Notes: a model not told the origin generated them from the sequence alone. DNA of 20,006 nt from a virus (IMGVR_UViG_3300034021_000201:1-20006); one strand, 5' to 3'; shown: positions 2,910 through 20,006, counted from the first letter of the stretch. A program made the numbers and translations.

Positions 2910-3184
2910 TGACTAAGAAATTTGAAAAGTCAAATCCTATGGGCGATTATATTCCAACTAAAAAAGAATATGAAGCATTTAGTTGGTGCATTAATAATGG
3001 AGTAAAAATATATCCATCAGCGTATTCATCTGATTCTAATAATAAATTATGGTATTTAAATATTGAAATAAACAAGCAAACACGTAAAAGTCCTAAGACT
3101 TACGGATCAGTGGAGATCTGGAAAAAACTTTATGAACTATATAAATTTTACTATGACAAAAACAGAATTCAAGACAGCAAGTGA
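2909..3184 (+). CDS. Small hypothetical protein
   Basis: This is a 91-residue Lys/Tyr-rich protein that I do not recognise. The chosen start is the ATG at 2909, which overlaps the primase-helicase stop by one base (TAATG). A TTG at 2900 in the same frame would add three residues but lies inside the upstream gene. The N-terminal part has a short YIPTKKEYEAFSW stretch and the C-terminal part is probably helical. There are no Cys pairs, membrane segments or known motifs. Its end overlaps the next gene by about 30 bases, so the three genes are likely translated from one message. Confidence 0.65.
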   Translation: MTKKFEKSNPMGDYIPTKKEYEAFSWCINNGVKIYPSAYSSDSNNKLWYLNIEINKQTRKSPKTYGSVEIWKKLYELYKFYYDKNRIQDSK

Positions 3185-3803
3185 TGCTTTTAATTATTTT
3201 TATCCTTTGGTATTATTTGAAGGCGAATGGTTCGATAATACTAAAGCTTTATTTAATGTAGGTTTTTATATCGAAGATCCTATGGATAATGCTATACACG
3301 CAAAGTATCGCAATTGGAATCCTAATTATGCTCAGCGCGAGTGGAATTGGTATTTGTCAGGCGATCCATCTGCGGTTGAAATATCTAAATTTGCTCCAAT
3401 ATGGAAAAACATGATGGATCAAGATGGTAATGTTAGATCTAACTATGGTTGGCAATGGAACAGAAATGGCCAATTAGGTAAAGTTATCAGAATGTTAAAC
3501 GATAATCCTAATACTAGAAAAGCCGCAATATCAATATATGATGGCAAAGAGATAGAGACGTATTCTAATGACACTCCTTGCACATACGGCGTTCAATTCA
3601 CAATACGTAATAATAAATTAAATATGACAGTTCTAATGAGATCTAATGATCTTTGGTATGGCTTCTGTAATGATCAATATTGTTTTTCAATGTTGTTGAA
3701 ATTAGTTTACGATGAATTAGTTTTGTTTAACAAAGATTTAACTATTGGTCACTACTATCACTTTGCTCATAATCTTCATTTATATAAAGATCAAATGGTA
3801 TGA
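3153..3803 (+). CDS. Thymidylate-synthase-fold enzyme, probable dCMP hydroxymethylase
   Basis: This 216-residue protein is clearly in the thymidylate synthase/pyrimidine hydroxymethylase superfamily. It has SNYGW (96-100), the catalytic Cys143 in TPCTYGVQF, the phosphate-binding MRSND (162-166) and an LHLY motif near the C-terminus (208-211). In thymidylate synthase, an Asn four residues after the Gly of the LGLPFN loop reads the uracil ring. Here the loop is GFCND, with Asp174 at that place. T4 dCMP hydroxymethylase (gp42), as I remember it, has the same MRSND...GF-x-ND arrangement, and its Asp179 gives cytosine specificity. The enzyme may therefore make 5-hydroxymethyl-dCMP rather than dTMP, from methylene-tetrahydrofolate. 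An in-frame ATG at 3132 would add seven residues. Superfamily is certain; substrate is inferred. Confidence 0.9.
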   Translation: MTKTEFKTASDAFNYFYPLVLFEGEWFDNTKALFNVGFYIEDPMDNAIHAKYRNWNPNYAQREWNWYLSGDPSAVEISKFAPIWKNMMDQDGNVRSNYGWQWNRNGQLGKVIRMLNDNPNTRKAAISIYDGKEIETYSNDTPCTYGVQFTIRNNKLNMTVLMRSNDLWYGFCNDQYCFSMLLKLVYDELVLFNKDLTIGHYYHFAHNLHLYKDQMV

Positions 3804-3808
3804 GGAAT

Positions 3809-3916
3809 ATGATATTAGTTTCTTTATGGACAATCGGTATATTCACTTTTTTTATAATACTAGCATTTATGATCAGTTTTTATAAGAATTTAAAAAACAA
3901 ATATGAAAAAAGATAA
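3809..3916 (+). CDS. Small single-pass membrane peptide
   Basis: This 35-codon ORF starts at an ATG five bases after the hydroxymethylase stop and ends 14 bases inside the next gene. It begins MILVSLWTIG and has one continuous hydrophobic stretch (residues 1-24, rich in Ile, Leu, Phe), then a basic tail with five Lys and one Arg (KNLKNKYEKR). This is the layout of a single transmembrane helix with a cytoplasmic basic C-terminus. Placement between tightly packed genes and the otherwise empty gap support a real gene. The function is unknown: a holin-like, superinfection-exclusion or regulatory membrane peptide are possibilities without direct evidence. Confidence 0.5.
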   Translation: MILVSLWTIGIFTFFIILAFMISFYKNLKNKYEKR

Positions 3917-4736
3917 AAAAATGTATTATTTATACCATATTCCAGGTAAAAAAATTGGAATGACGTGTAATATATATAACAGAGTAATCAAATGTCAAGG
4001 TTATAAACCTGGTGAATTTCAAATATTAGCATCTTCAGAGGATAAAGATGTTATAGAAATAAAAGAAAAACAATGGCAAGATGTCTTTAAGTATAAAAAA
4101 GATCTTAATACTTATACAAACGCTAAAAACAGTAATATTAATAAAATTAAACACAATAAACCTATGTATGTTAATGTAACAAGTCAAACAACAACGTTTC
4201 CAGTTCCAATCAGTGATTTAAAACAGTATTTAAAAAGAGGTATTGGTAGTAGATTTACTACTGATTACGGTCAATATGTAGTAAATGATGAATTAATTGA
4301 TGTGATTTTAGCAAATGCTAGAGAGTCAATGTACAGAAATACCTCATGTTATGTTTATAATAAAGTATTGTTTGAAGAAACTAAAGACAAAACAGATTCT
4401 AAATCTGAATTAATTGATTTGCCAAATATTGACAATCCACCTAATGTTTATGACTTAATTAGACAATGGGCTTCTGATCGTGGTATATACACAAGTGGTG
4501 ATTCTAAGACACAATATACAAAACTATGTGAAGAGTCTGGTGAATTAGCAAGAGCGATACTTAAAAAAGATAGAGCAGAATTAATTGATGCTATTGGTGA
4601 TATGGTTGTTGTATTAACTAATCTTGCTGCTTTAGAAGGTTTAAAGATTGAAGACTGTATTACTTCTGCTTATGACGTAATCAAGTCTCGTCAAGGTAAA
4701 ATGGAAAACGGAACATTTGTAAAACAAACTCTATAA
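3903..4736 (+). CDS. GIY-YIG-like / MazG-like NTP pyrophosphohydrolase fusion
   Basis: This 277-residue protein appears to have two domains. The C-terminal part (about 182-270) is a MazG-type all-alpha NTP pyrophosphohydrolase. It has Glu210-Glu211-x2-Glu214 in EESGELARA, then Glu226, Asp229 and Asp233 in AELIDAIGDMVV, the acidic set that binds Mg and the triphosphate. Such enzymes convert (d)NTPs to monophosphates plus pyrophosphate. The N-terminal part (about 7-65) has YYLYHIPGKKIGMT with Arg27 in YNRV, resembling a divergent GIY-YIG domain found in many phage proteins. YIG is replaced by KIG, so nuclease activity is doubtful. The middle (100-160) is unassigned. Lying after a hydroxymethylase-like enzyme, it could remove an unwanted dNTP such as dCTP, as T4 gp56 does. 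That is inference. Confidence 0.82.
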   Translation: MKKDKKMYYLYHIPGKKIGMTCNIYNRVIKCQGYKPGEFQILASSEDKDVIEIKEKQWQDVFKYKKDLNTYTNAKNSNINKIKHNKPMYVNVTSQTTTFPVPISDLKQYLKRGIGSRFTTDYGQYVVNDELIDVILANARESMYRNTSCYVYNKVLFEETKDKTDSKSELIDLPNIDNPPNVYDLIRQWASDRGIYTSGDSKTQYTKLCEESGELARAILKKDRAELIDAIGDMVVVLTNLAALEGLKIEDCITSAYDVIKSRQGKMENGTFVKQTL

Positions 4737-4739
4737 TAT

Positions 4740-5234
4740 ATGAATATACTAGAACAAGCACGTGGAATTATTTATGATAAGTCTGAAGAAAAAGAAAGAC
4801 AATATGGCGATTTCTTTGAGAACATGGAAGATGCTGCTAAAATAGCTTCTGTTATGTCTAAGAAACAATTAACTGCTGAAGATATATATCATGCTTTAAT
4901 TGGTCTTAAGTTTGCCAGAGAATCATTCACTCACAAACATGACAACATGTTAGATGCTATAGCTTATCTAGCTTCATTACACGAATACAAAGAATCAAAA
5001 TTTGAAAGAATAACACAGAAAATGTTAGATGATATTGAAGTTGTTGATCCAGTTATTGTTAAAGATAAAAAAAAAGATTTGAAGACAACTTCGAAGCGTG
5101 GGAATGGTCGTGGTGATCATTATTCTTTTGAAATAGATGATGACAAACAAAGTCCAGAAGAGATATTAATGAGATGGTGTAATACTAATACAGGGACAGT
5201 TGATATGTCTTTTGCACACATGACAGAAAATTGA
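4740..5234 (+). CDS. DUF6378-like phage protein
   Basis: This protein has 164 residues. The first 85 are mostly helical and match the pattern of the DUF6378 family common in phages: an ILEQARGIIYDKSEEKERQYG opening, a central TAEDIYHALIGLKFAR helix and a DNMLDAIAYLASL closing helix. The family has no firm function that I can name. Its helical make-up and frequent place next to nucleotide genes suggest a relation to all-alpha NTP pyrophosphohydrolases, and here it directly follows a MazG-domain gene. The remaining 80 residues are charged, with a Lys-rich and Gly/Arg-rich linker (about 108-125), and are unassigned. The start is the ATG three bases after the previous stop. The stop overlaps the TTG start of the next gene. 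Confidence 0.75.
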   Translation: MNILEQARGIIYDKSEEKERQYGDFFENMEDAAKIASVMSKKQLTAEDIYHALIGLKFARESFTHKHDNMLDAIAYLASLHEYKESKFERITQKMLDDIEVVDPVIVKDKKKDLKTTSKRGNGRGDHYSFEIDDDKQSPEEILMRWCNTNTGTVDMSFAHMTEN

Positions 5235-5816: not shown

Positions 5817-5958
5817 TTTAGGTATATTTCCAGGTATTGTATTTGGAATTAGAACGTATGAGTATGATCATCAACAGTACGCTGATCACGTTCTTTATTT
5901 TGGTTGTTTCGATATATGTTTAACTATATTTGAAGATAATGATTTCTATATGGGATAA
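5797..5958 (+). CDS. Small acidic hypothetical protein
   Basis: This 53-codon ORF overlaps the preceding basic ORF by 20 bases and the following oxygenase gene by 20 bases. The product starts MKDWEISLGIFPGIVFGIRT and continues with Tyr-Glu-Tyr-Asp-His and a Leu/Phe-rich half. It is acidic and hydrophobic, with no clear transmembrane helix or known motif. It is similar in style to short phage proteins of unknown role. Support comes from the gene spacing and sensible composition only. Confidence 0.5.
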   Translation: MKDWEISLGIFPGIVFGIRTYEYDHQQYADHVLYFGCFDICLTIFEDNDFYMG

Positions 5959-6511
5959 TTTATTAGGCAAACCTACTGTGACTAAAGAACTTGATAGAGT
6001 TATTGCAGAAGGTTTCGATGAACATATAGTTGGAGATAAATCTTTTTATGTTAATATGCCAAGTAAAGAATTTGACAAAAACATAGTAACAACTTTACAA
6101 AGAATACATAGATCAGATATAGACAAAGTACTTAGCTTTATTAGAGTTGCCACTGATAAACTAGATACAGACTGGCGTATACATTCGGATCTTAATATAA
6201 TGGGTCAAAGACCAGATAGAGCCGCTGTGCTATACATGTCACCTAGAGTTATAGATGATCTTCATGGTACAGCTTTTTGGTCACATAAAACTTACGGTAA
6301 TTTTTTACCTAAATACGTTACTGATGAAGAATTTAATAAAATGATAACTTCTGAAGCAAACGAAATGGATCAATGGAAACTAAGATCTGTTATCGGTTAC
6401 GAACAGGATAGATTAGTTGATTATGATGCTAGTTATTTTCATAGCAAATATCCAAACAAAGCATGGGAAGATGGTAGAATAGTATATGTAATATTTTATA
6501 ACTTTAAATAA
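5939..6511 (+). CDS. 2-oxoglutarate/Fe(II)-dependent oxygenase-like protein
   Basis: This 190-residue protein shows the double-stranded beta-helix iron-site pattern of 2-oxoglutarate oxygenases. His82-Ser-Asp84 (IHSDL) is the first ligand pair, His168 (SYFHSKYP) the distal ligand, and Arg180 twelve residues later the likely 2-oxoglutarate anchor. The fold is supported by the beta strands around them (AAVLYMSP, GRIVYVIFYN). It resembles the DUF6445/prolyl-hydroxylase-like oxygenases frequent in marine phages. Targets of these proteins are mostly unknown: protein side chains or modified nucleobases are both possible. It lies in the nucleotide-enzyme run. The ATG at 5939 is preferred over a TTG at 5930 in the same frame. 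The family call is fairly firm; the substrate is open. Confidence 0.72.
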   Translation: MISIWDNLLGKPTVTKELDRVIAEGFDEHIVGDKSFYVNMPSKEFDKNIVTTLQRIHRSDIDKVLSFIRVATDKLDTDWRIHSDLNIMGQRPDRAAVLYMSPRVIDDLHGTAFWSHKTYGNFLPKYVTDEEFNKMITSEANEMDQWKLRSVIGYEQDRLVDYDASYFHSKYPNKAWEDGRIVYVIFYNFK

Positions 6512-6976: not shown

Positions 6977-8845
6977 ATGAGTTTAACATTAGACAAACAG
7001 ATTTTAAGTGATATTACAGTATATACAAAATATGCAAAGTATTTACCAGAGAAAGAAAGAAGAGAAACCTGGGATGAATTAGTAACAAGGAATATGGAGA
7101 TGCATACTTCAAAGTTTCCAAAAATGAAAGAGTCAATTGAACAAGTTTACAAGAATTTTGTATTTACTAAAAAGGTTTTACCTTCGATGCGAAGCTTACA
7201 GTTTGGCGGTAAAGCTATTGAGCTTAATAACGCTCGCATTTATAACTGTGCTTTCTTACCTATTGATAGTATTCATAGTTTTTCTGAGACTATGTTTCTA
7301 CTTCTTGGTGGAACTGGTGTTGGTTATTCTGTACAAAACCATCAAATCGAAAAACTACCTGAGATCAGAAAACCAAATTATGATCGTAAAAAAAGATATG
7401 TAGTTCAAGATAGTATTATTGGTTGGGCAGATGCTATTAAAGTATTATTTAAATCTTATACAGGTGGATTAACTTCTCATATTGAATTTGATTTATCTGA
7501 TATTAGACCTAAAGGTGCGTTGCTTGTTACTGCCGGTGGTAAAGCTCCAGGTCCAGAACCATTGAGAATTGCTTTAGTTAAAATAGAAGCTATATTAAGA
7601 ACAAAAGAAGATAGATCTAAACTTACTGACATCGAGTGTCATGATATTCAGTGCCATATTGCCGATGCGGTTTTGGCTGGAGGTATTAGACGTGCTGCGA
7701 TGATCAGTTTGTTTGATCTTGATTCTGACGCTATGTTAAATTGTAAAGCTGGTAATTGGTGGGAGAATAACCCACAAAGAGGTAGAGCAAATAATTCAGT
7801 AGTTTTATTACGCCATAAAATTGATAAGAAAACATTTGATAAAGTATGGGAACGTATTGAAGCATCAGGATCAGGAGAACCTGGAATATACTTAACTAAT
7901 GATAAAGATTGGGGAACTAATCCTTGTTGTGAGATTGCTTTAAGACCATATCAATTTTGTAACCTTACAGAGATTAATATGGCAGATATTGAAAGTCAAG
8001 AGGATTTTAATGCTAGAGCTTCTGCTGCATCGTTTATTGGTACATTGCAAGCATCATACGCAGACTTTCATTACTTAAGAGATATATGGAGAAAAAACAC
8101 AGAAAAGGATGCATTGCTTGGAGTATCAATGACTGGTATCGCATCAAAGTCTAACTTAAATTTAAATTATGAAGAAGCTTCTAGAATTGTTAAAGAAACC
8201 AACAGCGTTATTTCTGCTGCCCTCAACATTAACAGAGCTGCAAGAACTACCGCTGTTAAACCAGCTGGCACTACTTCTCTTGTGCTTGGTACGTCTAGTG
8301 GTATTCACGCTTGGCATAACGATTATTATATTCGCCGTATGCGATTGGGTAAGAATGAAGCAATATATACCTATCTTGCAATAAATCATCCAGAATTGTT
8401 AGAAGATGAATATTTTAATCCAACATTGCAATCAGTTATTTCTGTGCCTCAGAAAGCTCCTGATGGCGCGATAACACGACATGAATCAACGTTAGATCTA
8501 TTAGAAAGGGTTAAATTAATTTCTAAAGACTGGGTTAAGACTGGTCATGATAAAGGTAATAACACTCATAATGTTTCTTGTACTGTTTCTGTACGTGATG
8601 ATGAATGGAAGATCATTGGTGAATGGATGTGGGCTAATAAAGAATATTATAATGGTTTATCCGTATTGCCATATCATGGTGGAACATATAAGCAAACTCC
8701 ATTTGAAGATTGTACTAAAGAACAATATGAACAAATGATGTCTACTTTAAAAGATGTTGATTTATCAAAAGTAATTGAAGTTCAAGATAATACTAATTTT
8801 AGTGAATCTGCAGCGTGCGGAGGCGGTAACTGTGAAATAACATAA
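6977..8845 (+). CDS. nrdJ: Class II (adenosylcobalamin-dependent) ribonucleotide reductase
   Basis: This 622-residue protein is a monomeric class II reductase like that of Lactobacillus leichmannii. It reduces ribonucleotides to deoxyribonucleotides using a thiyl radical made from coenzyme B12, without oxygen or a separate small subunit. The active site is visible: Cys91 (IYNCAFLP) and Cys328 (QFCNL) form the substrate-reducing pair. NPCCE (315-319) carries the thiyl Cys317 with Asn315 and Glu319. Cys614 and Cys619 in CGGGNC near the C-terminus form the disulfide shuttle. The 317-to-328 and 614-to-619 spacings match the L. leichmannii enzyme (408-419, 731-736). It is about 115 residues shorter than that enzyme, with no separate ATP cone seen. 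It lets the phage make dNTPs aerobically or anaerobically where cobalamin is available. Confidence 0.95.
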   Translation: MSLTLDKQILSDITVYTKYAKYLPEKERRETWDELVTRNMEMHTSKFPKMKESIEQVYKNFVFTKKVLPSMRSLQFGGKAIELNNARIYNCAFLPIDSIHSFSETMFLLLGGTGVGYSVQNHQIEKLPEIRKPNYDRKKRYVVQDSIIGWADAIKVLFKSYTGGLTSHIEFDLSDIRPKGALLVTAGGKAPGPEPLRIALVKIEAILRTKEDRSKLTDIECHDIQCHIADAVLAGGIRRAAMISLFDLDSDAMLNCKAGNWWENNPQRGRANNSVVLLRHKIDKKTFDKVWERIEASGSGEPGIYLTNDKDWGTNPCCEIALRPYQFCNLTEINMADIESQEDFNARASAASFIGTLQASYADFHYLRDIWRKNTEKDALLGVSMTGIASKSNLNLNYEEASRIVKETNSVISAALNINRAARTTAVKPAGTTSLVLGTSSGIHAWHNDYYIRRMRLGKNEAIYTYLAINHPELLEDEYFNPTLQSVISVPQKAPDGAITRHESTLDLLERVKLISKDWVKTGHDKGNNTHNVSCTVSVRDDEWKIIGEWMWANKEYYNGLSVLPYHGGTYKQTPFEDCTKEQYEQMMSTLKDVDLSKVIEVQDNTNFSESAACGGGNCEIT

Positions 8846-9662: not shown

Positions 9663-12600
9663 CTATTCTTCTCTATTTTTAATATTAGTCATTTCTGATT
9701 CTTGTGCTTTTCTTTCTTCTAATTCATTAGATATTTTTTCAAATTCTTCTACGTTACTACCTTCTCTTATAGATATATTATTCATTTCTATAAAGTCTTT
9801 AACTGTAAGTGCAGGTTCTACTTTTTTATACTTTTCGAACGTTTTTCTTTGAGACTTACTCAATGGATCTTTAGCCATTTCCTGTTTCAAACGTGGATTA
9901 AATATATTTAACCAAGTTTTCTTATTCTTTTTAGTAGGTTTAACTTTAGGTTCAAGATCTTTCATTTCCATATATTGTTCTTCAGTAAGTGCAGGTTCTA
10001 CTTTTTTGTATGACTCAAAAGTTTTTCTATCACTCTTACTTAAAACATCGATAGGTTCTGATTTTTCTTCTATATTTAAGTTATATTTATTGTAACCTAA
10101 TAACAACATTGTTCTTTGCCAAGTTTCTAATGAACTATCAGAAGCTAATCTTAAGTTTTCTATTTTTTGAAATATTCTATCAGCCGGTATGTTATAAACA
10201 GCTGACAATACTTTTGCCGCTGAACCGTAAGCTGGATTATCTAAAGACCAACCTGCTTCTTGTGATTTTTCTATTTCTTGTTTGTATATAAATGTTCTAC
10301 CAGCACTAACTAGTTTGTTCATCTTACTACTCATGGCTGGAGATATCGATAGTATTTCTAATGGTACCTCTTGTGGATTTTTTCTTCCAGATAACTCCAT
10401 TTCATACCATTTCTGCCACATGTTTTTAGCTGTTGAAGCTATCGCTCCGTACATACCCGATCCTTTTAATAAAGAATCTAATATACCGTCAACTGTAGAA
10501 GCTAATGCTTGATCTTCATATATGCTTTTTTCTTCAGTTTGTTCATCATCATCTCCAAATATAGACGCAAAAAGAGCATTTTGTAAGAAAGAGAATATCA
10601 TATTGTTTATTGCTCCATAGTATATTATCTTAGCAGCATTTTTCTTCCAATCACCTCTTTTATTAGCGATATCTAGAAACGCTCTCTTCATTAATCTATT
10701 ATATTGCATGGAAGTATTACCAAAAGCAAAAACTAATCTACCTATATTAGTTGATTGTATTTGTGATACTTTATCAGGTCTTGCAGATTGGTTAGTTGTT
10801 TCTGTTCTTTCAGACCAATCAGATATAGCTTGATCATGTGCTTCTTCTTCTGTGTATCCTATATCAATATAACGATTATAATGATTTCTATAAAAACTAG
10901 CACCACCTAATGCAGCAGATATAGAGTCGGCATATTTTGTTGGAGCAAAACCTGCTTCGCTGATTTTAGCGATTAGTTTTTTAAATCCATTTTTACCAGA
11001 AGCAGCTGTAGCAATATCATCGGCACTAACATCAAATCTTAAACCTCCACGTCTATCTAAAAGATAATCTTCATTCCATAACATTACAAAGTCTTTCCAA
11101 AACTGTTTTTGATTAGCAAAAGCTAAACCAGCAGCTACTGGATTGTTTATTTCCATGTCTATGTAGTTTATAGTAGCTGTTAACTGTAACAAAGCTGATC
11201 TAGTGTTAAAGAACATGATATTTGCATTAGCACCATTTATCCATTCTAACCATCTATTTGATTTAGCATCTGATTTATTATTTATATTTCTACCAGTTTT
11301 CATTCTATGAAGAGAACTTTCTAAAGCGTTTCTGAAATTCAAACCATATATAGCTTGTACTTTATCTAAGTTCTCTGGACTAAATACTTCGTCAACATGA
11401 CTTTGCCATATTTCTAAATGGAATTCTCTTCTTTCTCCATTCATGTAGTCAATTATATCTGTAGAAATAGTACCACCAAGCCAACTGTTATTATAAGGAA
11501 CGTATCCTAGTTTTCTTTTAGTTATTTTCGCTAACTGTTCTGCGTATTCTTTTAATTCTGGACGAGCTCTTACAAATTCAACTACTATTTCTAGTTCGTT
11601 TTCAGGAATCATTTTTATATCTTCTCCCTGTTTACTCCAAAGATATAATCTTATTGCTTGGTCTACCGTATAATTTGTAGAATAAATAGTAGATCTTAAT
11701 GTAGAGTTCTTTATTCCGCTTACGTTTTTTAACTCTTTATAATCTCTAATCATCTGCATCTTCTCTTTGTCATAATTATTTATAGCAGAAGAGAAAGGTT
11801 GTATTAGATTATCTTGAAAGAAGTTCCAAGCTCTTTCGCCATTTTCACCAAAAGGCAAGAAAGAATATAATAATCCAGAGAAGTCTTCTGCATCTGGAGG
11901 TAAGAAGAATCTAAATCTTCCTTTACCTCTACCTTTAACATACGCTGTAGCAGGTGAATATTTTTCTCCAGTAGGTATGCCTGTTTTCTGTTCTAATATA
12001 GAATTAAATCTAGTACCTAAATCCATAAATGCCCATTGTCCAAAACTAGCTTTTACTCTACTTTTATTTAAATCTTCATCTAATTTGTTTAACTCATCTA
12101 TAATCTTTGTGTTACTCATCTTAGAAACTTGTTCTTTAGAAAAAGCGGTAGAGTTTAAAAGTAATTCTTTGTTAGACATCCTAGCAACTTTTTCAAACAA
12201 CACAATCTTAGCTTTTATAATATAAGATTTTATTTTTTCACTAAAATATTCTATAAATTCTTTGAATTTAGGATTTTTATCTATTAATTTAGATATTAAA
12301 GAATCATACGTGTTTGCTCTTCTTGATATATCAACCATTTGGTTAAGTATACTGATTCCTTGTGAAGCAAATAAACCGTTATCTTTTAACCAATTCTTAG
12401 CCCATAAAGATGCTTTAGTAGTAGGTGTGTCTCTGTCTAATTGTTTAGCTATTTCACTTAAGTAGTTAGGAGCTAATTCGTTACCTAAGAACTCTTGTTT
12501 CTCTTCAAACTTAGATCTAAACTCTTCGTTATTGGCAAATAAATCCATAGTCATATCAAAAGATATTTCTTCTGCTATAGTATCTATCAATGCTGTTTTT

Positions 12601-15600
12601 CTAGTACTTCTAGTTGTTAAACCAACATATTGGCCTAAGAAATAACCATAAAAATAAGCCTTATCTATATCTTTTTTTCTAGTAACTCCATTTCTCCAGC
12701 TCTTACCGTCTTCTTTTATTTGAACAAATTCTTGTCTTCCATAATTATCTAGTACTGGTTCTGTGAATTCCTGGAAACGTTTGTTCATTACAGATATTGG
12801 TAAAGCATCATATAAAACTTTCCAATACTTATTAATGTAATAAGCATAATCTGTTTTAATACCAAACTCTCTTCTTAGTATAGCGGTAATATCTAATCTG
12901 ATTTCTCTTTGCATATACTGTTTAAATTCTTTAGAATTTACGTTTGGTATTTTGCTATTAAGAATTCTTATTAATTTAGTTTCTATATCTTTTACAGTAC
13001 TAGGTTCCATACCCATAGCTTCTGTAAGATCAACTTTTCTTTTAGCTACTTTATCGTGAAGATCTTCTTCTTCTTCAGACATTAACTGTTTAGCTCCTTC
13101 ATCAGATAATTGATTACCAAATGCTCTTTCTTGACCTGCTTTGGTTTTTACAGTACCAATGTTCTCTAAAATACGAGGAATACGTCTAGGTAAAATACCA
13201 TTAAGATACGCACCAAAATTATCATTCTTTTGAGGATCATAAGTACGTATTAATTCAAAGAATTGAAGGATAAGTTCTTCTTTTAAATCGTCTTGAGTAA
13301 ACGCAGTTTCATCTTGTTGATAATCCCAGTAACGTTTAGATAGATTATATATAAGACCCATGTTGTTAGCCAAAAGATCCATTTTTACTTTATCTCTTGT
13401 TCTTTCGTCTGTATTAGGATCTTTAAATATCTTCATTAAAGCAGAGTTTCTTTCAGAAATCTTTTGATTTTTTTCAGAAACGCCTTTTATAGATTCTCCT
13501 TCTGGTTTATTTAAGAAATCATTTATCTCTCTAACTCTAGCAATATTATTGTTTATTGTAGTTTGATCTTCCTCTGATTTAGTTTGACCACTTTTGTACT
13601 TAGAAGCAATATCTGTATTTATTTTTATAAGTTCTCTTTTTTCATCTTGTAAAACAAGTTTATTAAAAGAAAGAGACGCTTTAACACTTACATCAGAAAT
13701 TATATCGTTTAATCTTCTTTCTGTATCTTTTACAGTTACTAAGTTAAGTCCTTCATTAACTGCTTTCATTATAGGATTTTTATCCTCTTCTCTTTCGTTA
13801 ACTATCTCAGCAGCATATTCTATATTTTGATACATTACCCCAACGTTTTCGTCGGATACTTTACCCCAATAGTTTTCTACACCTCTATGTAATTCACCTA
13901 ACAAATCTAAAGCTATATTAGTAGGTATTTTTCTTGGTTTGTTTTCTTGTGTATAATCAGATATAATGCGTAAAGAAGGTTTAACGGTATTATTTATAGC
14001 ATCGTCGATAGATTCATTTACTTCTTTTTTAAACATTTCTGTTTTATAGAAATCATCTAACGAAACAACTCTACCACTTGGCTCGATGTATAGCACATCG
14101 TAGTCTTTACCTACTTTGTAAGAATAATCACTTATCGGAAGTTCATTACCTTTAAATTCTGGACTATAAGCTGTATAACCATCTGCATCAAAAATTTGTT
14201 GGTCATTTTTATTCATTACAAATCCATGATAGTTTTTTATCAATTCATCGTATTTTGACTTAAACTCCTCTATACTTGAACTATGTTTTATATTGTCAAG
14301 CATGTTACTTAAAAACGTAATGCTTTTTAATGGATGTTCGTAGTGAAATTGTTGTACAGACTGTTTTCCAGTTCTTTTACTTGTTTTTATAAAATAACCA
14401 GGAGTTATACTAAAGAATCTAGGAAATGCCAATTGTCTAGAAATAGCGGTTCCATTAGAAGACATTAACGACATTATAGTAGATATAAATCTAAGATAAC
14501 TAAGTTTATCTTCACTATCTAAATATTCGTTAAACAATGTTTCAAAGAAATATGCACCAGCATCTTTAATTGAATCTTCATTACTTTTACTTAAAACTTT
14601 AGAAAGAGCTTCTTTAATATTATTACCAAGTTCTACTTTTTCAGCAAGTGTAAGATCTACCGATGCATTAGTATCAACTTGGCGTTTTTTTATTAATTCA
14701 TCAGCTATTTCTTGTCTTCTTTTATCTATAGCAACTCTTTGTTCTCCAGTAAAATCACTTAAAGTCTTTTGTGTCTCTGTTTTGAATTCTTTCATAACAG
14801 CGTTGTAAGAAGCCGAATCAATATCAATATTATTTATCTTTTGTCTTTTATCAAAGAAATCAGATATAATCTTACCAATATTGTTTTTCATTGGTTCTAT
14901 ACCAACAGCTTTATAATCATCTATTGATTTTAATCTTTTATCGTTTATTACTTTTTTAAACCTAAACTTACTAGAGAACTGTTCATAACTAGTAGGATCA
15001 AATATACCGCCGCTACCTATCGCTATCTTTTTAAGAATATCTGTTTTGTGGAATCTTTCACCAAGTAAGTATGCTAATCTGTTAAGATCTGCTTTGAACA
15101 TCTTAATTTCTCTATCAAATTGAGATTGTTCCATTTTCTTACCTCTTCTAGAACCTTTCTTTAAAACATAAGAAGTAGTGAATACTTTTTCAGCGGATAC
15201 TATCTCTATTGCTAAATTTCTAATATCATCTTCAGATAAATCTTCAAGTTGTTTATCTTTTCTAGTTTTATCTTCTTCTAATATTTCTTCTATCTTACTT
15301 TGAATATCTTGTTCTGATATTGCATCTAATCTACTTTTAGAAAGATCTAATTCAAAATCTTCAGCTAATTTAGTCTGTATTTCTTTGGTAGTAAATTCTT
15401 GATCTCTAACTGATTTTGCTAGATCAAAAAAATAACTTTCTAATTCAGACGTATCAATATTACTATATTTTAAATTGTTTTTAGATATAGTGAAAAATCC
15501 TTTTATTTTTTTTAATAAAAGAGCATCAGCTTTATCTCCAGTTTCTTTACCTAATAAGAAACTAGGTAATCTATTATCAACAAAATCTTTTAAAATCTGT

Positions 15601-18600
15601 GTCTTTCTTTTTAATTCTATAGGATTTTTAGACTTAATTTGAAGGGAAGGTTTAACTATAACATCTGTTTTTTGCTTACTGTCTATGCCTTTTTTTATAT
15701 ATCTATTTAAAAAAACTTGTAAACTTTTAACATCTTTTAAATTATCAACTAATCTAACATTAATAGCACCTTTGTTTTGTTGTTTTATATAAGTTTTGTT
15801 TTTCTCATTCAACATATCTCTAACACTATCTATTTTAGAATACATAGATTTAGTGTCTTCGTTAGATAAATAATCCCAGTATTTTTCTACACTATCTTCT
15901 AATTGATTTATTAAGTCATTAAATTCAGGAGTTGTTAGACCAGTTTTTTGAGTTTTACTTATATGATCTTCAACTATTGTTAAAGAAGGTTTAACTTTTA
16001 TTTCATACTTTGCTTTGAATTTAGATTTTGATTTTTCCATTCCATCAATCTTCTTCACTTCGCTAGTCGATGAAACATTACCAATAACTATAACCTCTGT
16101 AAGTTTACCTACTTTATTACCTTCTGGATTTAATCCGTATCCTTCTGTTTCAGAAAACAATTCCTCGTCTTCGTATACAGATTTCATAAAATGCTCTAAT
16201 ACTTCATCTGCTCTATTATCTTTCATTAAGAAATCAACATTAGGTCCAATTCCATTTCTTAATATTTTTAACCTATACTGTTCATAAGATTCATTAAAAT
16301 TATCATACGTTTTTTTCATCCACGCATAATCATCTTTTATCATTTCTTCGGTTATCTCTGGAAAATCTTCGTTAAAAACACGAGAATAATCACTAGATCT
16401 ATTTATATCTGGTATTATTATAGAACCAGGCATATCGTTTAATGTTGATTCATATATAACTCCGTCTCCATAAGTTGGTTCTGCTTTATCGACGGTAAAC
16501 CAAATAGCTACAGCTTCTTTTTGTTCAAAACTACGTTCTATTCCCTGCGAGCCGCTATGAAATAATTTTTGTTTTTTTAGTTTTTCTGTAAAATTAATAT
16601 ATTCTTTAGAACTTGTTAATTTTGGAAATTTTTCTTCAAAACTACCTTTTAACGAAGCTTTTGTTCCTTGATCAAATTTTATAGTTAAAGGTTTTGTAGT
16701 TTGTTTTGCATTTGGTTTTTTAACCAGTTTACCTTCAACAGAACCTTTTTCTAATGCTGCTTTTACTCCTTTAGATAATTCACCTTTTCTAAAAGTTCTT
16801 CTATATTCTTTTATAAAATCATAAACATCTTTACCAGTATCAAATTTAACTATGTCATCTACGTTTTGTATTTTTAATACTTTTCTTAAAAATTCTTTTA
16901 TCTTTTCCCCTAATCTTTGTAAGAAATTAGGATCCATAGATTCCATGCCTATATTATACTTTTGTAATGCGTCACCAACTACTTGTATTAATTCATCATA
17001 AGCATAATCTTGTTTTGTGTCAATCGCGTGTTGTTGATAAGCCTTCACGCCTGCTAGGATGTATTCTAACGCATTCTTTTCGTTCTGACGTGTAGATTTA
17101 CCAAATAATGTTTTAACATGATCTAACAACGCGTCATGTATCTCTTTGTAATCTTCTGGATTTTTACTTACCAACCTATCAAATATAGAATGACCAGGTT
17201 CGTGAGCAAATACACCTTCGCCTTCTATTCTTTCTTTTATGTTGTATATATAGTCAGTTCCGTTAATGTTTGCATTTACTGCTTCTGCTGACTTTATAGT
17301 TTTTAAAAAAGTTGCTTTCTGTGCTTTAGCTTTTGCTTCTGTTAACTCTCCTGCTTCTACTAATTTAGTTAATAATTTATCATGTTGCTCTATAGCTTCT
17401 TCTATTGTATTAACATTTGTAACTTCAATACCAGATAAACCTTTACTTTTTAATATTTCATTAATAGCGCCAACACCTTTTCCTTGTGTTGTAAACATAC
17501 TATTGATAGCAATATTGTTTTGTTTTTCTCTTATACGTTTTAATTCTTCTTTTTTAATTAATACCTCAGCACCATCTTTACCTTCTATTTCTCTTTCTAA
17601 GTTTTTAGCTTTAACTTCTAAATCGTATAAATCTCTTTTTTCTTGTACAGTATAATTACCATCTAGTTTAGATAGTATTTTTGTTTCTTGTACAAGTTTA
17701 TTTAACTCTCTTTTTTTATTATCGTGTGTTTCTTTAAGATCTTTTATTAACTGCTCTTTATTACTAGAATCACTATTGTATATTTCAGTGGCTTGCATTT
17801 TAAGATCTGCAAGTTCTTTACTTAAATTTATTACTTTGTCATAATCAGAAGGAGGCATATCACCTATTCTCTTAACTAGACCTTTCATAATTTCAGAGCT
17901 ACTATCTGTAAGATCTTTTATTTTCTGCTCTATAGCGGTTGATTCTGCAAAAGATAAACTATTATCTTTTAGAAGATTCATATATTTTGCTATTTTTAAA
18001 GCATTATCTTTTATAGTTAATGTATCGTCTTTTGGTAAAAAAGGTTTTACAGCAGCGCCAATTATATGAGGAGCAGATTGTAACATACCAGTTAACAAAG
18101 CAGTGTCTTTAAATACTCGACCAGTATTATCTAATAAACCTACATTTTGACCAAGTATGAATTTATTTACTGAGTTTTGAATTAAGTTAGTTGCCTGTTC
18201 TGAAACGTTTTCATTCAAGAAATCTATACCTTTGTCTTTAAAGAAATCAACTGATCTTTGTTTCAATGTCTTCTGTACAAAGTTAGTATCTCCTTTTAAT
18301 AAAGCATCTAATGTTCTACCTGAACCTTTTAATATATCAACCGTTACTTTTTCACCTAAAGCTTCTGCATATCCCCAAAGTAATGACGAAGCAACCATTT
18401 GTATAGGATTATAATTAGTTTCACCTATATCATTTGATCTAACGTTTTCTAAGTATTTTCCACCAGCACTACCAGCAGCCATTAATTGAAGACTTGGATC
18501 TAACGCCATTTTGTTTATCGTCCAACTAGCAGCTTTTTTTAAAGTAGATTTAGCAGTTTGTTCAACAACTACTTTACCGACAACTTCTGCCGCAACAGTT

Positions 18601-20006
18601 CTAGCGGCTGCAGAACCACCGCCAGACAAAGCCATTAATGTTAAATTTGGTAGTTGATTTGCTATTAAATCAAAAGAATATTCTCCAAGACTTTCAGCAT
18701 CTGTTATCTCTACAGTTTTTTGAAAATAATTATTCCAAAATTCTTCGCTATATTGATTATACCTTGCTATTGTTTTAGTTGTGTCAGAAACATATTCAAA
18801 ATCATCATCTCCAATCGTTTTAGAATATAAATATCTACCAGGTATAGTCGAAAAATCTGCTACTAAAGAACCAAACCCAATTATCTGAGTAAATAAAGAT
18901 TTAAAAGCTGCTGCTGGTTTTAGTATTAAGTTACCAGCACCATAGTGTCTTTTAAATACGTCAAATTCTTGTTCTGCTGTCTGTAAATCTTCCTGTGATT
19001 TATCTAAACTTTTTAAGTTTTCTTCCTGTGCATATTGTAATCCTACTACAGTATTACGTAGATCGTTATAATAATTAAACTTTGATTTGTATTCTTCGTA
19101 TTCTTCTTTACTTTTGAATTTGTAATCTTTAGTATACTGTTTTAAAGCATCTCCTGCTGCTTGAAGTCTAGGTATTGCTGCTTTTACATTTTTTTCAATG
19201 CGTTGATTTAATAATGCTTTGTATTTTGTTTGTTTAGCAGCATTAATAGATGCTTCTTCAGATGCTTTTTTTAACTCTGCTTGTTCTTCATCAGTAGCAT
19301 CTTCCATAAAATCCTTAGCGTTGTTATCATATATAGAAGCTAACTTTTTCTTTCTATATCTTTGAACAGCTAATTTGCGTATTGCATCGTCATTATACTT
19401 ATCTAATGTTTGACTTTTCTTTAACTCAGCTATTATCTCTGCTTTTTCAGTTGAAAACGCGGTATATTTAGTTTTAACAGTATATGGCGCCTGAAAGTCA
19501 CTTTTAGGAACGTATGTAGTTTCTTTTATTTCACCGTCTCTTGACAATTCATTTTTAATTTCTAAATCTAATTCTGACAACTGTTCTTGATTAGGTTTAG
19601 TGTACTGTAAAAACCTAGCGTGTGCTTCTGATTTTTTTCTACGTCTTACAGCAGCAGCAGCATGTTTTGCCTCCCATTCTGCTTCGTCAAGGGCTTTCTG
19701 TTCATTTAAAGCTTTATTTTTTTTAATTTGTTGGTCTTTATATTCATCAGACCACATCATAGATACTTGATCCTCTTTTTTTGGATTTATTTGTTTATCA
19801 AGATATGCTCCAAAGTCATTAACACCAGGAATTATCTTAAGACTATTGTTTAATGACGCCGAAGAACCAGTTGCCTTTTTGGATGCCCCATTTTTTTGAC
19901 CTGTTGCGACAGCACCCTTTGCAGCAACAGTTTTCTTCTTTCCCGGCGTTACTGGAACATCTTCTTGAATATTACCTTGTTCTTTTATACCAAATTGTTT
20001 AACTGC
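9663..20006 (-). CDS. Giant multidomain polyvalent (probable ejected virion) protein, 5' partial
   Basis: The gene runs leftward and its frame stays open to the window edge, so its start is missing; at least 3447 codons are present. Numbering here is from the first Met in the window (19760); 82 more codons precede it without a Met. Parts in order: charged helices (1-280), a hydrophobic Gly/Ala-rich region (about 280-576), a coiled coil (590-790), a zincin motif HEPGH (853-857), an ADP-ribosyltransferase-like domain (1034-1256), a module found twice (1257-1369 and 1927-2026), a sigma-70 region 2-like part (2127-2206) and a long C-terminal half with a hydrophobic helix near 3040-3070 and a tandem repeat. 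This mix is typical of phage polyvalent proteins that are packaged in the head and ejected with the DNA. No single enzymatic role can be given. The frame is intact throughout. Confidence 0.88.
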   Translation of the reverse strand, partial: AVKQFGIKEQGNIQEDVPVTPGKKKTVAAKGAVATGQKNGASKKATGSSASLNNSLKIIPGVNDFGAYLDKQINPKKEDQVSMMWSDEYKDQQIKKNKALNEQKALDEAEWEAKHAAAAVRRRKKSEAHARFLQYTKPNQEQLSELDLEIKNELSRDGEIKETTYVPKSDFQAPYTVKTKYTAFSTEKAEIIAELKKSQTLDKYNDDAIRKLAVQRYRKKKLASIYDNNAKDFMEDATDEEQAELKKASEEASINAAKQTKYKALLNQRIEKNVKAAIPRLQAAGDALKQYTKDYKFKSKEEYEEYKSKFNYYNDLRNTVVGLQYAQEENLKSLDKSQEDLQTAEQEFDVFKRHYGAGNLILKPAAAFKSLFTQIIGFGSLVADFSTIPGRYLYSKTIGDDDFEYVSDTTKTIARYNQYSEEFWNNYFQKTVEITDAESLGEYSFDLIANQLPNLTLMALSGGGSAAARTVAAEVVGKVVVEQTAKSTLKKAASWTINKMALDPSLQLMAAGSAGGKYLENVRSNDIGETNYNPIQMVASSLLWGYAEALGEKVTVDILKGSGRTLDALLKGDTNFVQKTLKQRSVDFFKDKGIDFLNENVSEQATNLIQNSVNKFILGQNVGLLDNTGRVFKDTALLTGMLQSAPHIIGAAVKPFLPKDDTLTIKDNALKIAKYMNLLKDNSLSFAESTAIEQKIKDLTDSSSEIMKGLVKRIGDMPPSDYDKVINLSKELADLKMQATEIYNSDSSNKEQLIKDLKETHDNKKRELNKLVQETKILSKLDGNYTVQEKRDLYDLEVKAKNLEREIEGKDGAEVLIKKEELKRIREKQNNIAINSMFTTQGKGVGAINEILKSKGLSGIEVTNVNTIEEAIEQHDKLLTKLVEAGELTEAKAKAQKATFLKTIKSAEAVNANINGTDYIYNIKERIEGEGVFAHEPGHSIFDRLVSKNPEDYKEIHDALLDHVKTLFGKSTRQNEKNALEYILAGVKAYQQHAIDTKQDYAYDELIQVVGDALQKYNIGMESMDPNFLQRLGEKIKEFLRKVLKIQNVDDIVKFDTGKDVYDFIKEYRRTFRKGELSKGVKAALEKGSVEGKLVKKPNAKQTTKPLTIKFDQGTKASLKGSFEEKFPKLTSSKEYINFTEKLKKQKLFHSGSQGIERSFEQKEAVAIWFTVDKAEPTYGDGVIYESTLNDMPGSIIIPDINRSSDYSRVFNEDFPEITEEMIKDDYAWMKKTYDNFNESYEQYRLKILRNGIGPNVDFLMKDNRADEVLEHFMKSVYEDEELFSETEGYGLNPEGNKVGKLTEVIVIGNVSSTSEVKKIDGMEKSKSKFKAKYEIKVKPSLTIVEDHISKTQKTGLTTPEFNDLINQLEDSVEKYWDYLSNEDTKSMYSKIDSVRDMLNEKNKTYIKQQNKGAINVRLVDNLKDVKSLQVFLNRYIKKGIDSKQKTDVIVKPSLQIKSKNPIELKRKTQILKDFVDNRLPSFLLGKETGDKADALLLKKIKGFFTISKNNLKYSNIDTSELESYFFDLAKSVRDQEFTTKEIQTKLAEDFELDLSKSRLDAISEQDIQSKIEEILEEDKTRKDKQLEDLSEDDIRNLAIEIVSAEKVFTTSYVLKKGSRRGKKMEQSQFDREIKMFKADLNRLAYLLGERFHKTDILKKIAIGSGGIFDPTSYEQFSSKFRFKKVINDKRLKSIDDYKAVGIEPMKNNIGKIISDFFDKRQKINNIDIDSASYNAVMKEFKTETQKTLSDFTGEQRVAIDKRRQEIADELIKKRQVDTNASVDLTLAEKVELGNNIKEALSKVLSKSNEDSIKDAGAYFFETLFNEYLDSEDKLSYLRFISTIMSLMSSNGTAISRQLAFPRFFSITPGYFIKTSKRTGKQSVQQFHYEHPLKSITFLSNMLDNIKHSSSIEEFKSKYDELIKNYHGFVMNKNDQQIFDADGYTAYSPEFKGNELPISDYSYKVGKDYDVLYIEPSGRVVSLDDFYKTEMFKKEVNESIDDAINNTVKPSLRIISDYTQENKPRKIPTNIALDLLGELHRGVENYWGKVSDENVGVMYQNIEYAAEIVNEREEDKNPIMKAVNEGLNLVTVKDTERRLNDIISDVSVKASLSFNKLVLQDEKRELIKINTDIASKYKSGQTKSEEDQTTINNNIARVREINDFLNKPEGESIKGVSEKNQKISERNSALMKIFKDPNTDERTRDKVKMDLLANNMGLIYNLSKRYWDYQQDETAFTQDDLKEELILQFFELIRTYDPQKNDNFGAYLNGILPRRIPRILENIGTVKTKAGQERAFGNQLSDEGAKQLMSEEEEDLHDKVAKRKVDLTEAMGMEPSTVKDIETKLIRILNSKIPNVNSKEFKQYMQREIRLDITAILRREFGIKTDYAYYINKYWKVLYDALPISVMNKRFQEFTEPVLDNYGRQEFVQIKEDGKSWRNGVTRKKDIDKAYFYGYFLGQYVGLTTRSTRKTALIDTIAEEISFDMTMDLFANNEEFRSKFEEKQEFLGNELAPNYLSEIAKQLDRDTPTTKASLWAKNWLKDNGLFASQGISILNQMVDISRRANTYDSLISKLIDKNPKFKEFIEYFSEKIKSYIIKAKIVLFEKVARMSNKELLLNSTAFSKEQVSKMSNTKIIDELNKLDEDLNKSRVKASFGQWAFMDLGTRFNSILEQKTGIPTGEKYSPATAYVKGRGKGRFRFFLPPDAEDFSGLLYSFLPFGENGERAWNFFQDNLIQPFSSAINNYDKEKMQMIRDYKELKNVSGIKNSTLRSTIYSTNYTVDQAIRLYLWSKQGEDIKMIPENELEIVVEFVRARPELKEYAEQLAKITKRKLGYVPYNNSWLGGTISTDIIDYMNGERREFHLEIWQSHVDEVFSPENLDKVQAIYGLNFRNALESSLHRMKTGRNINNKSDAKSNRWLEWINGANANIMFFNTRSALLQLTATINYIDMEINNPVAAGLAFANQKQFWKDFVMLWNEDYLLDRRGGLRFDVSADDIATAASGKNGFKKLIAKISEAGFAPTKYADSISAALGGASFYRNHYNRYIDIGYTEEEAHDQAISDWSERTETTNQSARPDKVSQIQSTNIGRLVFAFGNTSMQYNRLMKRAFLDIANKRGDWKKNAAKIIYYGAINNMIFSFLQNALFASIFGDDDEQTEEKSIYEDQALASTVDGILDSLLKGSGMYGAIASTAKNMWQKWYEMELSGRKNPQEVPLEILSISPAMSSKMNKLVSAGRTFIYKQEIEKSQEAGWSLDNPAYGSAAKVLSAVYNIPADRIFQKIENLRLASDSSLETWQRTMLLLGYNKYNLNIEEKSEPIDVLSKSDRKTFESYKKVEPALTEEQYMEMKDLEPKVKPTKKNKKTWLNIFNPRLKQEMAKDPLSKSQRKTFEKYKKVEPALTVKDFIEMNNISIREGSNVEEFEKISNELEERKAQESEMTNIKNREE
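9774..10049 (-). repeat. Tandem protein repeat at the C-terminus of the giant protein
   Basis: Residues 3238-3269 (bases 9954-10049) and 3298-3329 (9774-9869) are the same motif, exactly 60 residues (180 bases) apart. The first 22 positions share 19 residues, including LSKS, RKTFE and YKKVEPALT. A Lys-rich linker lies between. It may be a binding motif used twice, for example for packaging or a virion partner. Confidence 0.9.
13143..13382 (-). other. Sigma-70 region 2-like domain within the giant protein
   Basis: Residues 2127-2206 follow the sigma-70 region 2 pattern. NNMGLIYNLSKRYWDY corresponds to the first helix, then comes an acidic helix (FTQDDLKEELILQFFELIRTY), then YDPQKNDNFGAYLNGILPRRI, equivalent to the FDP-KG-x-FxTYA segment of sigma factors. 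In real sigma factors this part binds the core polymerase clamp and the -10 element. The match is by eye; no region 4 was recognised after it. Confidence 0.55.
13791..13982 (-). repeat. Duplicated protein module, copy B
   Basis: Residues 1927-1990 begin KPSLRI and contain GVENYWGKVSDENVGVMYQN. They align without gaps with copy A 670 residues earlier. Eleven of 31 positions in the core (1960-1990) are identical. Confidence 0.75.
15801..15992 (-). repeat. Duplicated protein module, copy A
   Basis: Residues 1257-1320 begin KPSLTI and contain SVEKYWDYLSNEDTKSMYSK. Both copies start with K-P-S-L, and both have the Val-Glu-x-Tyr-Trp signature exactly 34-38 residues after the Lys. The module runs about 110 residues to the next K-x-S-L tetrapeptide (1370). 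Confidence 0.75.
15993..16661 (-). other. ADP-ribosyltransferase-like domain within the giant protein
   Basis: Residues 1034-1256 have the layout of phage ART-like domains: FHSGS with His1068 in the first motif, IWFTVDKAEPTYGDG with Phe1088-Thr1089 in the second, and VIYESTL just after. Such enzymes move ADP-ribose from NAD to host proteins. The final catalytic Glu is not securely identified. The domain starts at a KASL tetrapeptide and ends at KPSL. Confidence 0.5.
17190..17204 (-). other. Zincin motif HEPGH within the giant protein
   Basis: His853-Glu-Pro-Gly-His857 in VFAHEPGHSIF matches HExxH, the zinc-binding and catalytic helix of zinc metallopeptidases. Glu-containing helices follow about 70 residues later and could give the third ligand. 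Such domains are common in polyvalent phage proteins. Protease activity is plausible but not shown. Confidence 0.6.

What the first reader, a model, noticed from the sequence alone, without database searches (positions are those of the whole stretch)
3153..5234. Possible T4-like cytosine-modification route
The thymidylate-synthase-fold enzyme has Asp174 in GFCND, where a true synthase has Asn. In T4 gp42 this Asp gives dCMP specificity, and the MRSND...GF-x-ND string matches my memory of gp42. It is followed by a MazG-domain enzyme and a DUF6378-like protein. In T4 a dCTP pyrophosphatase of the all-alpha class removes dCTP and supplies dCMP to the hydroxymethylase. This phage may therefore carry 5-hydroxymethyl-dC or a derivative. 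A dHMP kinase is not visible in the window.
Basis: partly seen in the sequence, partly recalled or inferred. Interest (0 to 1): 0.68.

Follow-up and report, generated by a model that had tools for sequence, protein, structure and literature searches.

The report
Phage dCMP hydroxymethylase with MazG partner
This aquatic phage encodes an enzyme that, by every residue test available, makes hydroxymethyl-cytosine building blocks as phage T4 does, but its complete relatives lack T4's kinase and sugar-adding genes, so cytosine is probably modified by a shorter, host-assisted route; sister phages carry the same enzyme inside a cassette that may attach amino acids to cytosine.

Summary
ORF 3153(3132)-3803 is a thymidylate-synthase-fold enzyme whose best solved relative is T4 dCMP hydroxymethylase. 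It has every published signature residue of that class (T4 numbering Ser94, Tyr96, Arg123, Asp145, Ser169, Asp179; no C-terminal tail). These are invariant in 80/80 relatives, whereas true synthases and dUMP hydroxymethylases in the same alignment differ. A dCMP hydroxymethylase is well supported.

A MazG pyrophosphohydrolase with an intact active site follows it in 71 of 72 relatives. The full "T4-like route" is only partly met. No dNMP kinase was found in 30 related records, two of them closed by exact terminal repeats, and no glycosyltransferase or DNA polymerase was recognised in the complete relative surveyed. Phosphorylation and polymerisation are probably left to the host. Whether virion DNA carries 5hmC is unmeasured.

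Unexpected link: in sister phages the DUF6378/hydroxymethylase/MazG core encloses an SGNH-like gene, an amino-acid:DNA-transferase-like gene and a PLP enzyme (order intact in at least 47 of 80 loci; the dCMP-type Asp in 69/69). This suggests amino-acid-hypermodified cytosine there. Those extra genes were not found in the window group.

The window's own system is a new member of a known kind.

The parts
3153..3803 (+). dCMP 5-hydroxymethylase (alternative in-frame start 3132). T4-equivalent residues in genome coordinates: Asp145 = codon 3570-3572, catalytic Cys148 = 3579-3581, Asp179 = 3672-3674
   Evidence: PF00303; T4 gp42 top PDB hit; signature residues invariant in 80/80 relatives; residue classes against references
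3800..3916 (+). 38-aa single-pass membrane-like peptide, overlapping the hydroxymethylase stop (ATGA) and the MazG start; function unknown, suggests translational coupling
   Evidence: read; conserved in L002, L003, L004/L053 only
3903..4736 (+). MazG-type NTP pyrophosphohydrolase, C-terminal domain about residues 181-274, with an N-terminal beta-beta-alpha-beta-alpha domain; candidate dCTPase
   Evidence: PF03819/PF01503; active-site acidic residues invariant; downstream of the hydroxymethylase in 71/72 loci; structure
4740..5234 (+). DUF6378 protein; function unknown, recurrent companion of the hydroxymethylase
   Evidence: PF19905 5e-10; near the hydroxymethylase in two phage backbones
1191..2909 (+). 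DNA primase/helicase (context: replication operon)
   Evidence: phrog_239 9.3e-86
6977..8845 (+). ribonucleotide reductase, B12-dependent type (context: dNTP supply)
   Evidence: phrog_367 1.9e-130; PF02867, PF21995

Best explanation
The ORF encodes a dCMP 5-hydroxymethylase. By analogy with T4 gp42 it binds dCMP and methylene-tetrahydrofolate: the catalytic Cys attacks C6, the Asp179 equivalent recognises cytosine, and the Asp145 equivalent activates the water that adds to the exocyclic methylene, giving 5-hydroxymethyl-dCMP. The MazG encoded just downstream most likely hydrolyses dCTP to dCMP, which feeds the enzyme and removes the unmodified competitor. 5hm-dCMP is then probably phosphorylated by host nucleotide kinases and incorporated by the host replicase, since no phage kinase or polymerase was recognised in complete relatives. 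The virion DNA would carry 5hmC or a derivative and resist host nucleases. Shown from sequence: enzyme class, the conserved pairing with MazG, and the absence of known kinase families in related genomes. Inferred: MazG acting on dCTP, use of host kinase and polymerase, 5hmC in virions, protection.
For: T4 gp42 is the best PDB relative. All signature residues named in PMC6400193 and PMC5175136 are present and invariant in 80/80 relatives. At T4 positions 94/145/149/179, ThyA reads P/L/H/N, dUMP hydroxymethylases A or G/D/N/N, gp42 and the window S/D/T/D. PMC8670742 ties Asp at this site, and the neighbouring position 147, to contigs with modified cytosine, and reports co-occurrence of thymidylate-synthase-family genes with PF01503. 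MazG downstream in 71/72 loci with conserved catalytic residues. A cyanophage MazG prefers dGTP and dCTP (PMC6850273). A D-type homologue in Lactobacillus phage ATCCB sits next to an annotated beta-glucosyltransferase. No second PF00303 gene, no ThyX, and dCMP deaminase in only one of 35 records, so a thymidylate role is unsupported.
Against: No phage dNMP kinase was found, which T4 needs. No glycosyltransferase was recognised, though many genes of the complete relative are unassigned. The join of the window group with gp42 is only 87/83 and involves long branches. MazG substrate and base content are unmeasured. The window record is only 20 kb.
Confidence: 0.8

Rival explanations
1. It is a dCMP methyltransferase that makes 5-methyl-dCMP, as reported for phage XP12-type enzymes and for Asn-to-Asp mutants of thymidylate synthase.
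For: Asn to Asp at this site switches E. coli thymidylate synthase to dCMP and gives 5mdCMP (PMC8670742). The XP12 enzyme could not be compared.
Against: The Asp145 equivalent that activates water is present where synthases have Leu, with Ser94 and Tyr96, and the synthase C-terminal tail is missing.
Confidence: 0.06
2. It is a dUMP-acting enzyme, either a thymidylate synthase or a dUMP hydroxymethylase serving thymidine modification.
For: Same fold; Pfam and PHROGs call it thymidylate synthase.
Against: Asp instead of Asn at position 179 in 80/80; Thr after the catalytic Cys instead of His or Asn; ThyA separated at 100/100 and the dUMP enzymes at 99/94 in the tree.
Confidence: 0.04
3. It hydroxymethylates the ribonucleotide CMP, like MilA and BcmA.
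For: MilA is a close PDB match (8.3e-15) and also has the Asp.
Against: The ribose-selecting Lys133 and Ala176 of MilA are Arg and Ser here in 80/80 relatives; phage replication context.
Confidence: 0.02
4. The enzyme is active on dCMP but the product is not built into phage DNA; with no phage kinase, hydroxymethylation and MazG would deplete the host dCTP pool or favour a low-GC phage genome.
For: No dNMP kinase in related records, including two closed genomes; low GC of about 0.30; the cyanophage MazG was proposed to serve an AT-rich phage.
Against: In sister phages the same core is joined to transferase-like and PLP genes of a type used in DNA hypermodification, and Asp-type enzymes are associated with modified contigs.
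Confidence: 0.08

Closest known systems
Phage T4 gp42, dCMP 5-hydroxymethylase (PDB 1b49, 6a9b, 6l18)
   Same: Fold, catalytic residues, cytosine-specific Asp, water-activating Asp, no C-terminal synthase tail
   Different: Low overall identity; the genomic setting lacks the dNMP kinase and recognisable glucosyltransferase and DNA polymerase genes, and is paired with MazG and DUF6378
Deoxycytidylate 5-hydroxymethyltransferase of Bacteroides phage BF486P2 (OP172667)
   Same: Closest isolate relative, 47% identity over 93%, same signature residues
   Different: 53-kb phage of a gut host with a second divergent TS-fold gene and a dUTPase nearby
Modified-contig thymidylate-synthase family genes of MetaGPA (PMC8670742)
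   Same: Asp at the specificity site and co-occurrence with PF01503 pyrophosphohydrolase
   Different: No carbamoyltransferase in the window group
Cyanophage S-PM2 MazG (PMC6850273)
   Same: Phage MazG-family pyrophosphohydrolase; preferred substrates dGTP and dCTP
   Different: The window MazG is fused to an extra N-terminal domain and is tied to a hydroxymethylase
Phage PaMx11 gp46 glycinyltransferase and the thymidine hypermodification systems (relevant only to the sister cassette)
   Same: The sister cassette joins a TS-fold hydroxymethylase to an amino-acid:DNA-transferase-like protein; PaMx11 gp46 is the top solved neighbour (Z 7.4)
   Different: The hydroxymethylase is dCMP-type in 69/69 loci; the window group lacks the transferase

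Membership tests
dCMP 5-hydroxymethylase (T4 gp42 type) | Thymidylate synthase fold with catalytic Cys and Glu60 | tested here: met
   PF00303 1.2e-20; Cys148 and Glu60 in query and 80/80 relatives
dCMP 5-hydroxymethylase (T4 gp42 type) | Asp179 for cytosine instead of Asn | tested here: met
   Asp in query and 80/80; Asn in ThyA and dUMP enzymes
dCMP 5-hydroxymethylase (T4 gp42 type) | Hydroxymethylation signature Ser94, Tyr96, Asp145 | tested here: met
   All present and invariant in 80/80, signature defined
dCMP 5-hydroxymethylase (T4 gp42 type) | Deoxyribose-type residues Arg123 and Ser169 | tested here: met
   Arg and Ser in 80/80; contrast with MilA
dCMP 5-hydroxymethylase (T4 gp42 type) | No C-terminal synthase tail | tested here: met
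   216-223 aa, ends just after the alignable core; E. coli ThyA 264 aa
dCMP 5-hydroxymethylase (T4 gp42 type) | Phylogenetic grouping with known dCMP hydroxymethylases | tested here: inconclusive
   Grouped with gp42 at 87/83 with long branches; outside ThyA (100/100) and dUMP enzymes
[quoted passage not shown]
   Needs an enzyme assay
T4-like 5hmC DNA pathway | dCTP-hydrolysing enzyme | tested here: inconclusive
   MazG with conserved catalytic residues is linked in 71/72 loci; its substrate is not known
T4-like 5hmC DNA pathway | Phage dHMP/dNMP kinase | tested here: not met
   No PF21448 or PF02223 in 30 related records and no small Walker-A protein in near-complete ones; the window's own record is a 20-kb fragment
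T4-like 5hmC DNA pathway | Glucosyltransferase or other 5hmC-modifying enzyme | tested here: inconclusive
   No carbamoyltransferase and no glycosyltransferase recognised in G002; many genes unassigned
T4-like 5hmC DNA pathway | 5hmC in virion DNA | not testable with these tools
   Needs nucleoside mass spectrometry
MazG pyrophosphohydrolase | MazG domain with EExxE and D...D catalytic residues | tested here: met
   PF03819 1.9e-7; E210, E211, E214, D229, D233 invariant in 19 homologues; MazG-fold neighbours
All-alpha NTP pyrophosphatase (for DUF6378) | Profile similarity to MazG or to solved pyrophosphatases | tested here: inconclusive
   hhalign probability 0.1% to MazG with shallow profiles; no meaningful PDB match

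The most novel reading that the evidence does not exclude
The window holds the stripped core (DUF6378, dCMP hydroxymethylase, MazG) of a widespread aquatic-phage cassette that elsewhere reads DUF6378 - SGNH-like - amino-acid:DNA-transferase-like - PLP enzyme - dCMP hydroxymethylase - MazG. There the cassette would make 5hmC and then attach an amino acid to it in DNA, a cytosine counterpart of the thymidine hypermodification known from phages such as PaMx11 and ViI. The window phage would use the same 5hmC supply with no second step, or with one not yet recognised.
Probability: 0.4. Interest if true: 0.78.

Novelty: new member of a known kind. Interest (0 to 1): 0.5.

Why it matters
It extends T4-type cytosine hydroxymethylation to GroEL-encoding phages whose packaging genes are closest to Flavobacterium and Cellulophaga phages, and the enzyme is common in aquatic viral contigs (506 encoded relatives from one query). 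The missing kinase makes a clear question testable: how does 5hm-dCMP reach DNA without T4's gp1? The linkage of the same core to a transferase-like and a PLP gene in sister phages points to a cytosine hypermodification that nucleoside mass spectrometry could confirm or exclude directly.

Tried and rejected
Thymidylate synthase and dUMP hydroxymethylase: rejected on residues and tree. CMP hydroxymethylase: rejected on Arg/Ser. Carbamoylated 5hmC: no PF16861 in 30 records. Kinase elsewhere in the genome: two families and a Walker-A scan, none found. ThyX or dCMP deaminase as a thymidylate supply: none, except one deaminase in G027. DUF6378 as an all-alpha pyrophosphatase: hhalign against MazG and against the small KYG-containing protein that takes its place in relatives gave no support, with shallow profiles; no PDB match. 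XP12 methyltransferase as a reference: accession not held. Papers on amino-acid:DNA transferases and Iyer 2013 were not held or not found.

Full report
Observation. The ORF at 3132/3153-3803 is intact and under purifying selection (43 synonymous against 9 non-synonymous codon differences to L002). It is a thymidylate-synthase-fold protein (PF00303 1.2e-20). Phmmer against the PDB ranks T4 dCMP hydroxymethylase first (5.5e-16), CMP hydroxymethylase MilA next (8e-15), and true thymidylate synthases only from 4e-10. With the start at 3153 the Asp is residue 174.

What distinguishes the class. A structural study of T4 dCMP hydroxymethylase (PMC6400193) names Asp179 for cytosine recognition, Asp145 three residues before the catalytic Cys for activating the attacking water, Ser94 and Tyr96, and the lack of the synthase C-terminal tail. 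The MilA study (PMC5175136) names Arg and Ser as the deoxyribose-type pair. MetaGPA (PMC8670742) found that positions 177 and 147 (E. coli numbering) separate contigs with modified cytosine from the rest. I aligned the window protein with relatives and references. At T4 positions 94/145/149/179 the ThyA proteins read P/L/H/N; SPO1, ViI and Montesquieu enzymes read A or G/D/N/N; T4 and Aeromonas phage 25 read S/D/T/D, and so does the window. Across 80 IMG/VR relatives of 57-96% identity, E60, W82, S94, Y96, R123, D145, C148, S169, D171 and D179 are invariant, and Thr149 is present in all 24 relatives checked. The protein ends where the synthase tail would begin. A maximum-likelihood tree sets ThyA apart at 100/100 and the dUMP enzymes at 99/94. 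The join of the window group with gp42 is only 87/83 with long branches, so the residues carry the argument, not the tree.

Partner genes. In 71 of 72 relatives with enough flank, a MazG-domain gene follows on the same strand, often overlapping or within 30 bases. Its catalytic acidic residues are invariant in 19 aligned homologues. In the window's group it is fused to an N-terminal domain whose predicted order is beta-beta-alpha-beta-alpha; the C-terminal domain resembles MazG and DCTPP1 structures, at weak E-values. A cyanophage MazG prefers dGTP and dCTP (PMC6850273), so dCTP hydrolysis is plausible but not shown here. DUF6378 (4740-5234) recurs near the hydroxymethylase in two different phage backbones; its function could not be assigned. 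In the window and its closest relatives a 38-aa membrane-like peptide overlaps the two main genes.

The rest of the pathway. The window is a 20-kb record. Thirty related records were searched; about twenty are 61-72 kb, and two (65.8 and 65.3 kb) end in exact 127-bp terminal repeats and so look complete. Each has exactly one PF00303 gene. None has PF21448 or PF02223 kinases or the PF16861 carbamoyltransferase, and no small Walker-A protein that could be a nucleotide kinase was seen in the genomes read in full. In the complete relative G002 the recognisable genes are a MoxR-like ATPase, sigma factor, ERF, exonuclease, primase-helicase, hydroxymethylase, MazG, RNR, terminase, portal, crAss-type muzzle, GroEL and GroES; no polymerase or glycosyltransferase was recognised, although many genes are unassigned. 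The nearest terminases in isolates are from an uncultured podovirus and from Flavobacterium and Cellulophaga phages. That uncultured podovirus, MW202828, has ThyX and no annotated hydroxymethylase. So the front end of the T4 route is present, its kinase step is not, and host kinase and polymerase are the natural inference.

Unexpected context. In other phages (L050, L044, L042, L023 and others; hydroxymethylase 63-66% identical to the window's, different terminase and structural genes) the hydroxymethylase-MazG pair is preceded by DUF6378, an SGNH-like protein (my reading of a GDSH motif; phrog_13881 of unknown function), a 300-aa helical protein and a PLP enzyme (PF00291 4.9e-11). The helical protein has no Pfam match and no tblastn match in isolates. 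Its predicted structure (mean pLDDT 79) matches viral models named amino acid:DNA transferase (6e-10), and its best solved neighbour is the glycinyltransferase gp46 of phage PaMx11 (Z 7.4; a middling Z for a helical protein, but first in the list). A profile search found 210 relatives. In the best 80 loci the order DUF6378-SGNH-transferase-PLP-hydroxymethylase-MazG is intact in at least 47, and 69 of 69 alignable hydroxymethylases have the dCMP-type Asp. The transferase profile finds nothing in the window group. This suggests a cytosine counterpart of thymidine hypermodification, with the window carrying only its core.

Verdict. The enzyme identity is well supported. That the virion DNA carries 5hmC or a derivative is likely but unmeasured. 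The system in the window is a new member of a known kind; the sister cassette is the part that may be new.

Noticed in passing
L050:7053-10925, L044:7071-10943, L023:220-4146, and loci L139-L210: Conserved cassette DUF6378 - SGNH-like - amino-acid:DNA-transferase-like - PLP enzyme - dCMP-type hydroxymethylase - MazG in aquatic phages; candidate cytosine hypermodification.
   Followed up: partly
window 3800-3916: 38-aa single-helix membrane-like peptide overlapping both the hydroxymethylase stop and the MazG start; conserved only in the closest relatives.
   Followed up: partly
window 5930-6511: ORF with an invariant HxD...H...R pattern in 11 homologues, looking like a 2OG-Fe(II) dioxygenase; present in relatives with the B12-type RNR. 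No PDB profile match.
   Followed up: partly
window 9663-20006 (-): Giant protein of at least 3365 aa with no Pfam match; by eye it contains an HExxH-like motif (HEPGHSIFD) and a sigma-70 region-2-like stretch.
   Followed up: no
L083:17156-17917 (Bacteroides phage BF486P2): Second, very divergent TS-fold gene with Asp179 but Leu at the Glu60 position, next to a dUTPase; a long branch in the tree.
   Followed up: no
L136:550-1779 (Lactobacillus phage ATCCB): Asp-type hydroxymethylase directly followed by an annotated beta-glucosyltransferase; candidate glucosylated 5hmC outside T4-like phages.
   Followed up: no
L123:8958-9632 (MW202828): A terminase relative (65% identity) of the window group encodes ThyX (PF02511 4.9e-30) and has no annotated hydroxymethylase.
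   Followed up: partly
L088:2208-4748 (G002), also in G007 and G008: MoxR-like AAA ATPase next to a weakly VWA-like protein, an unusual pair in a phage genome.
   Followed up: no
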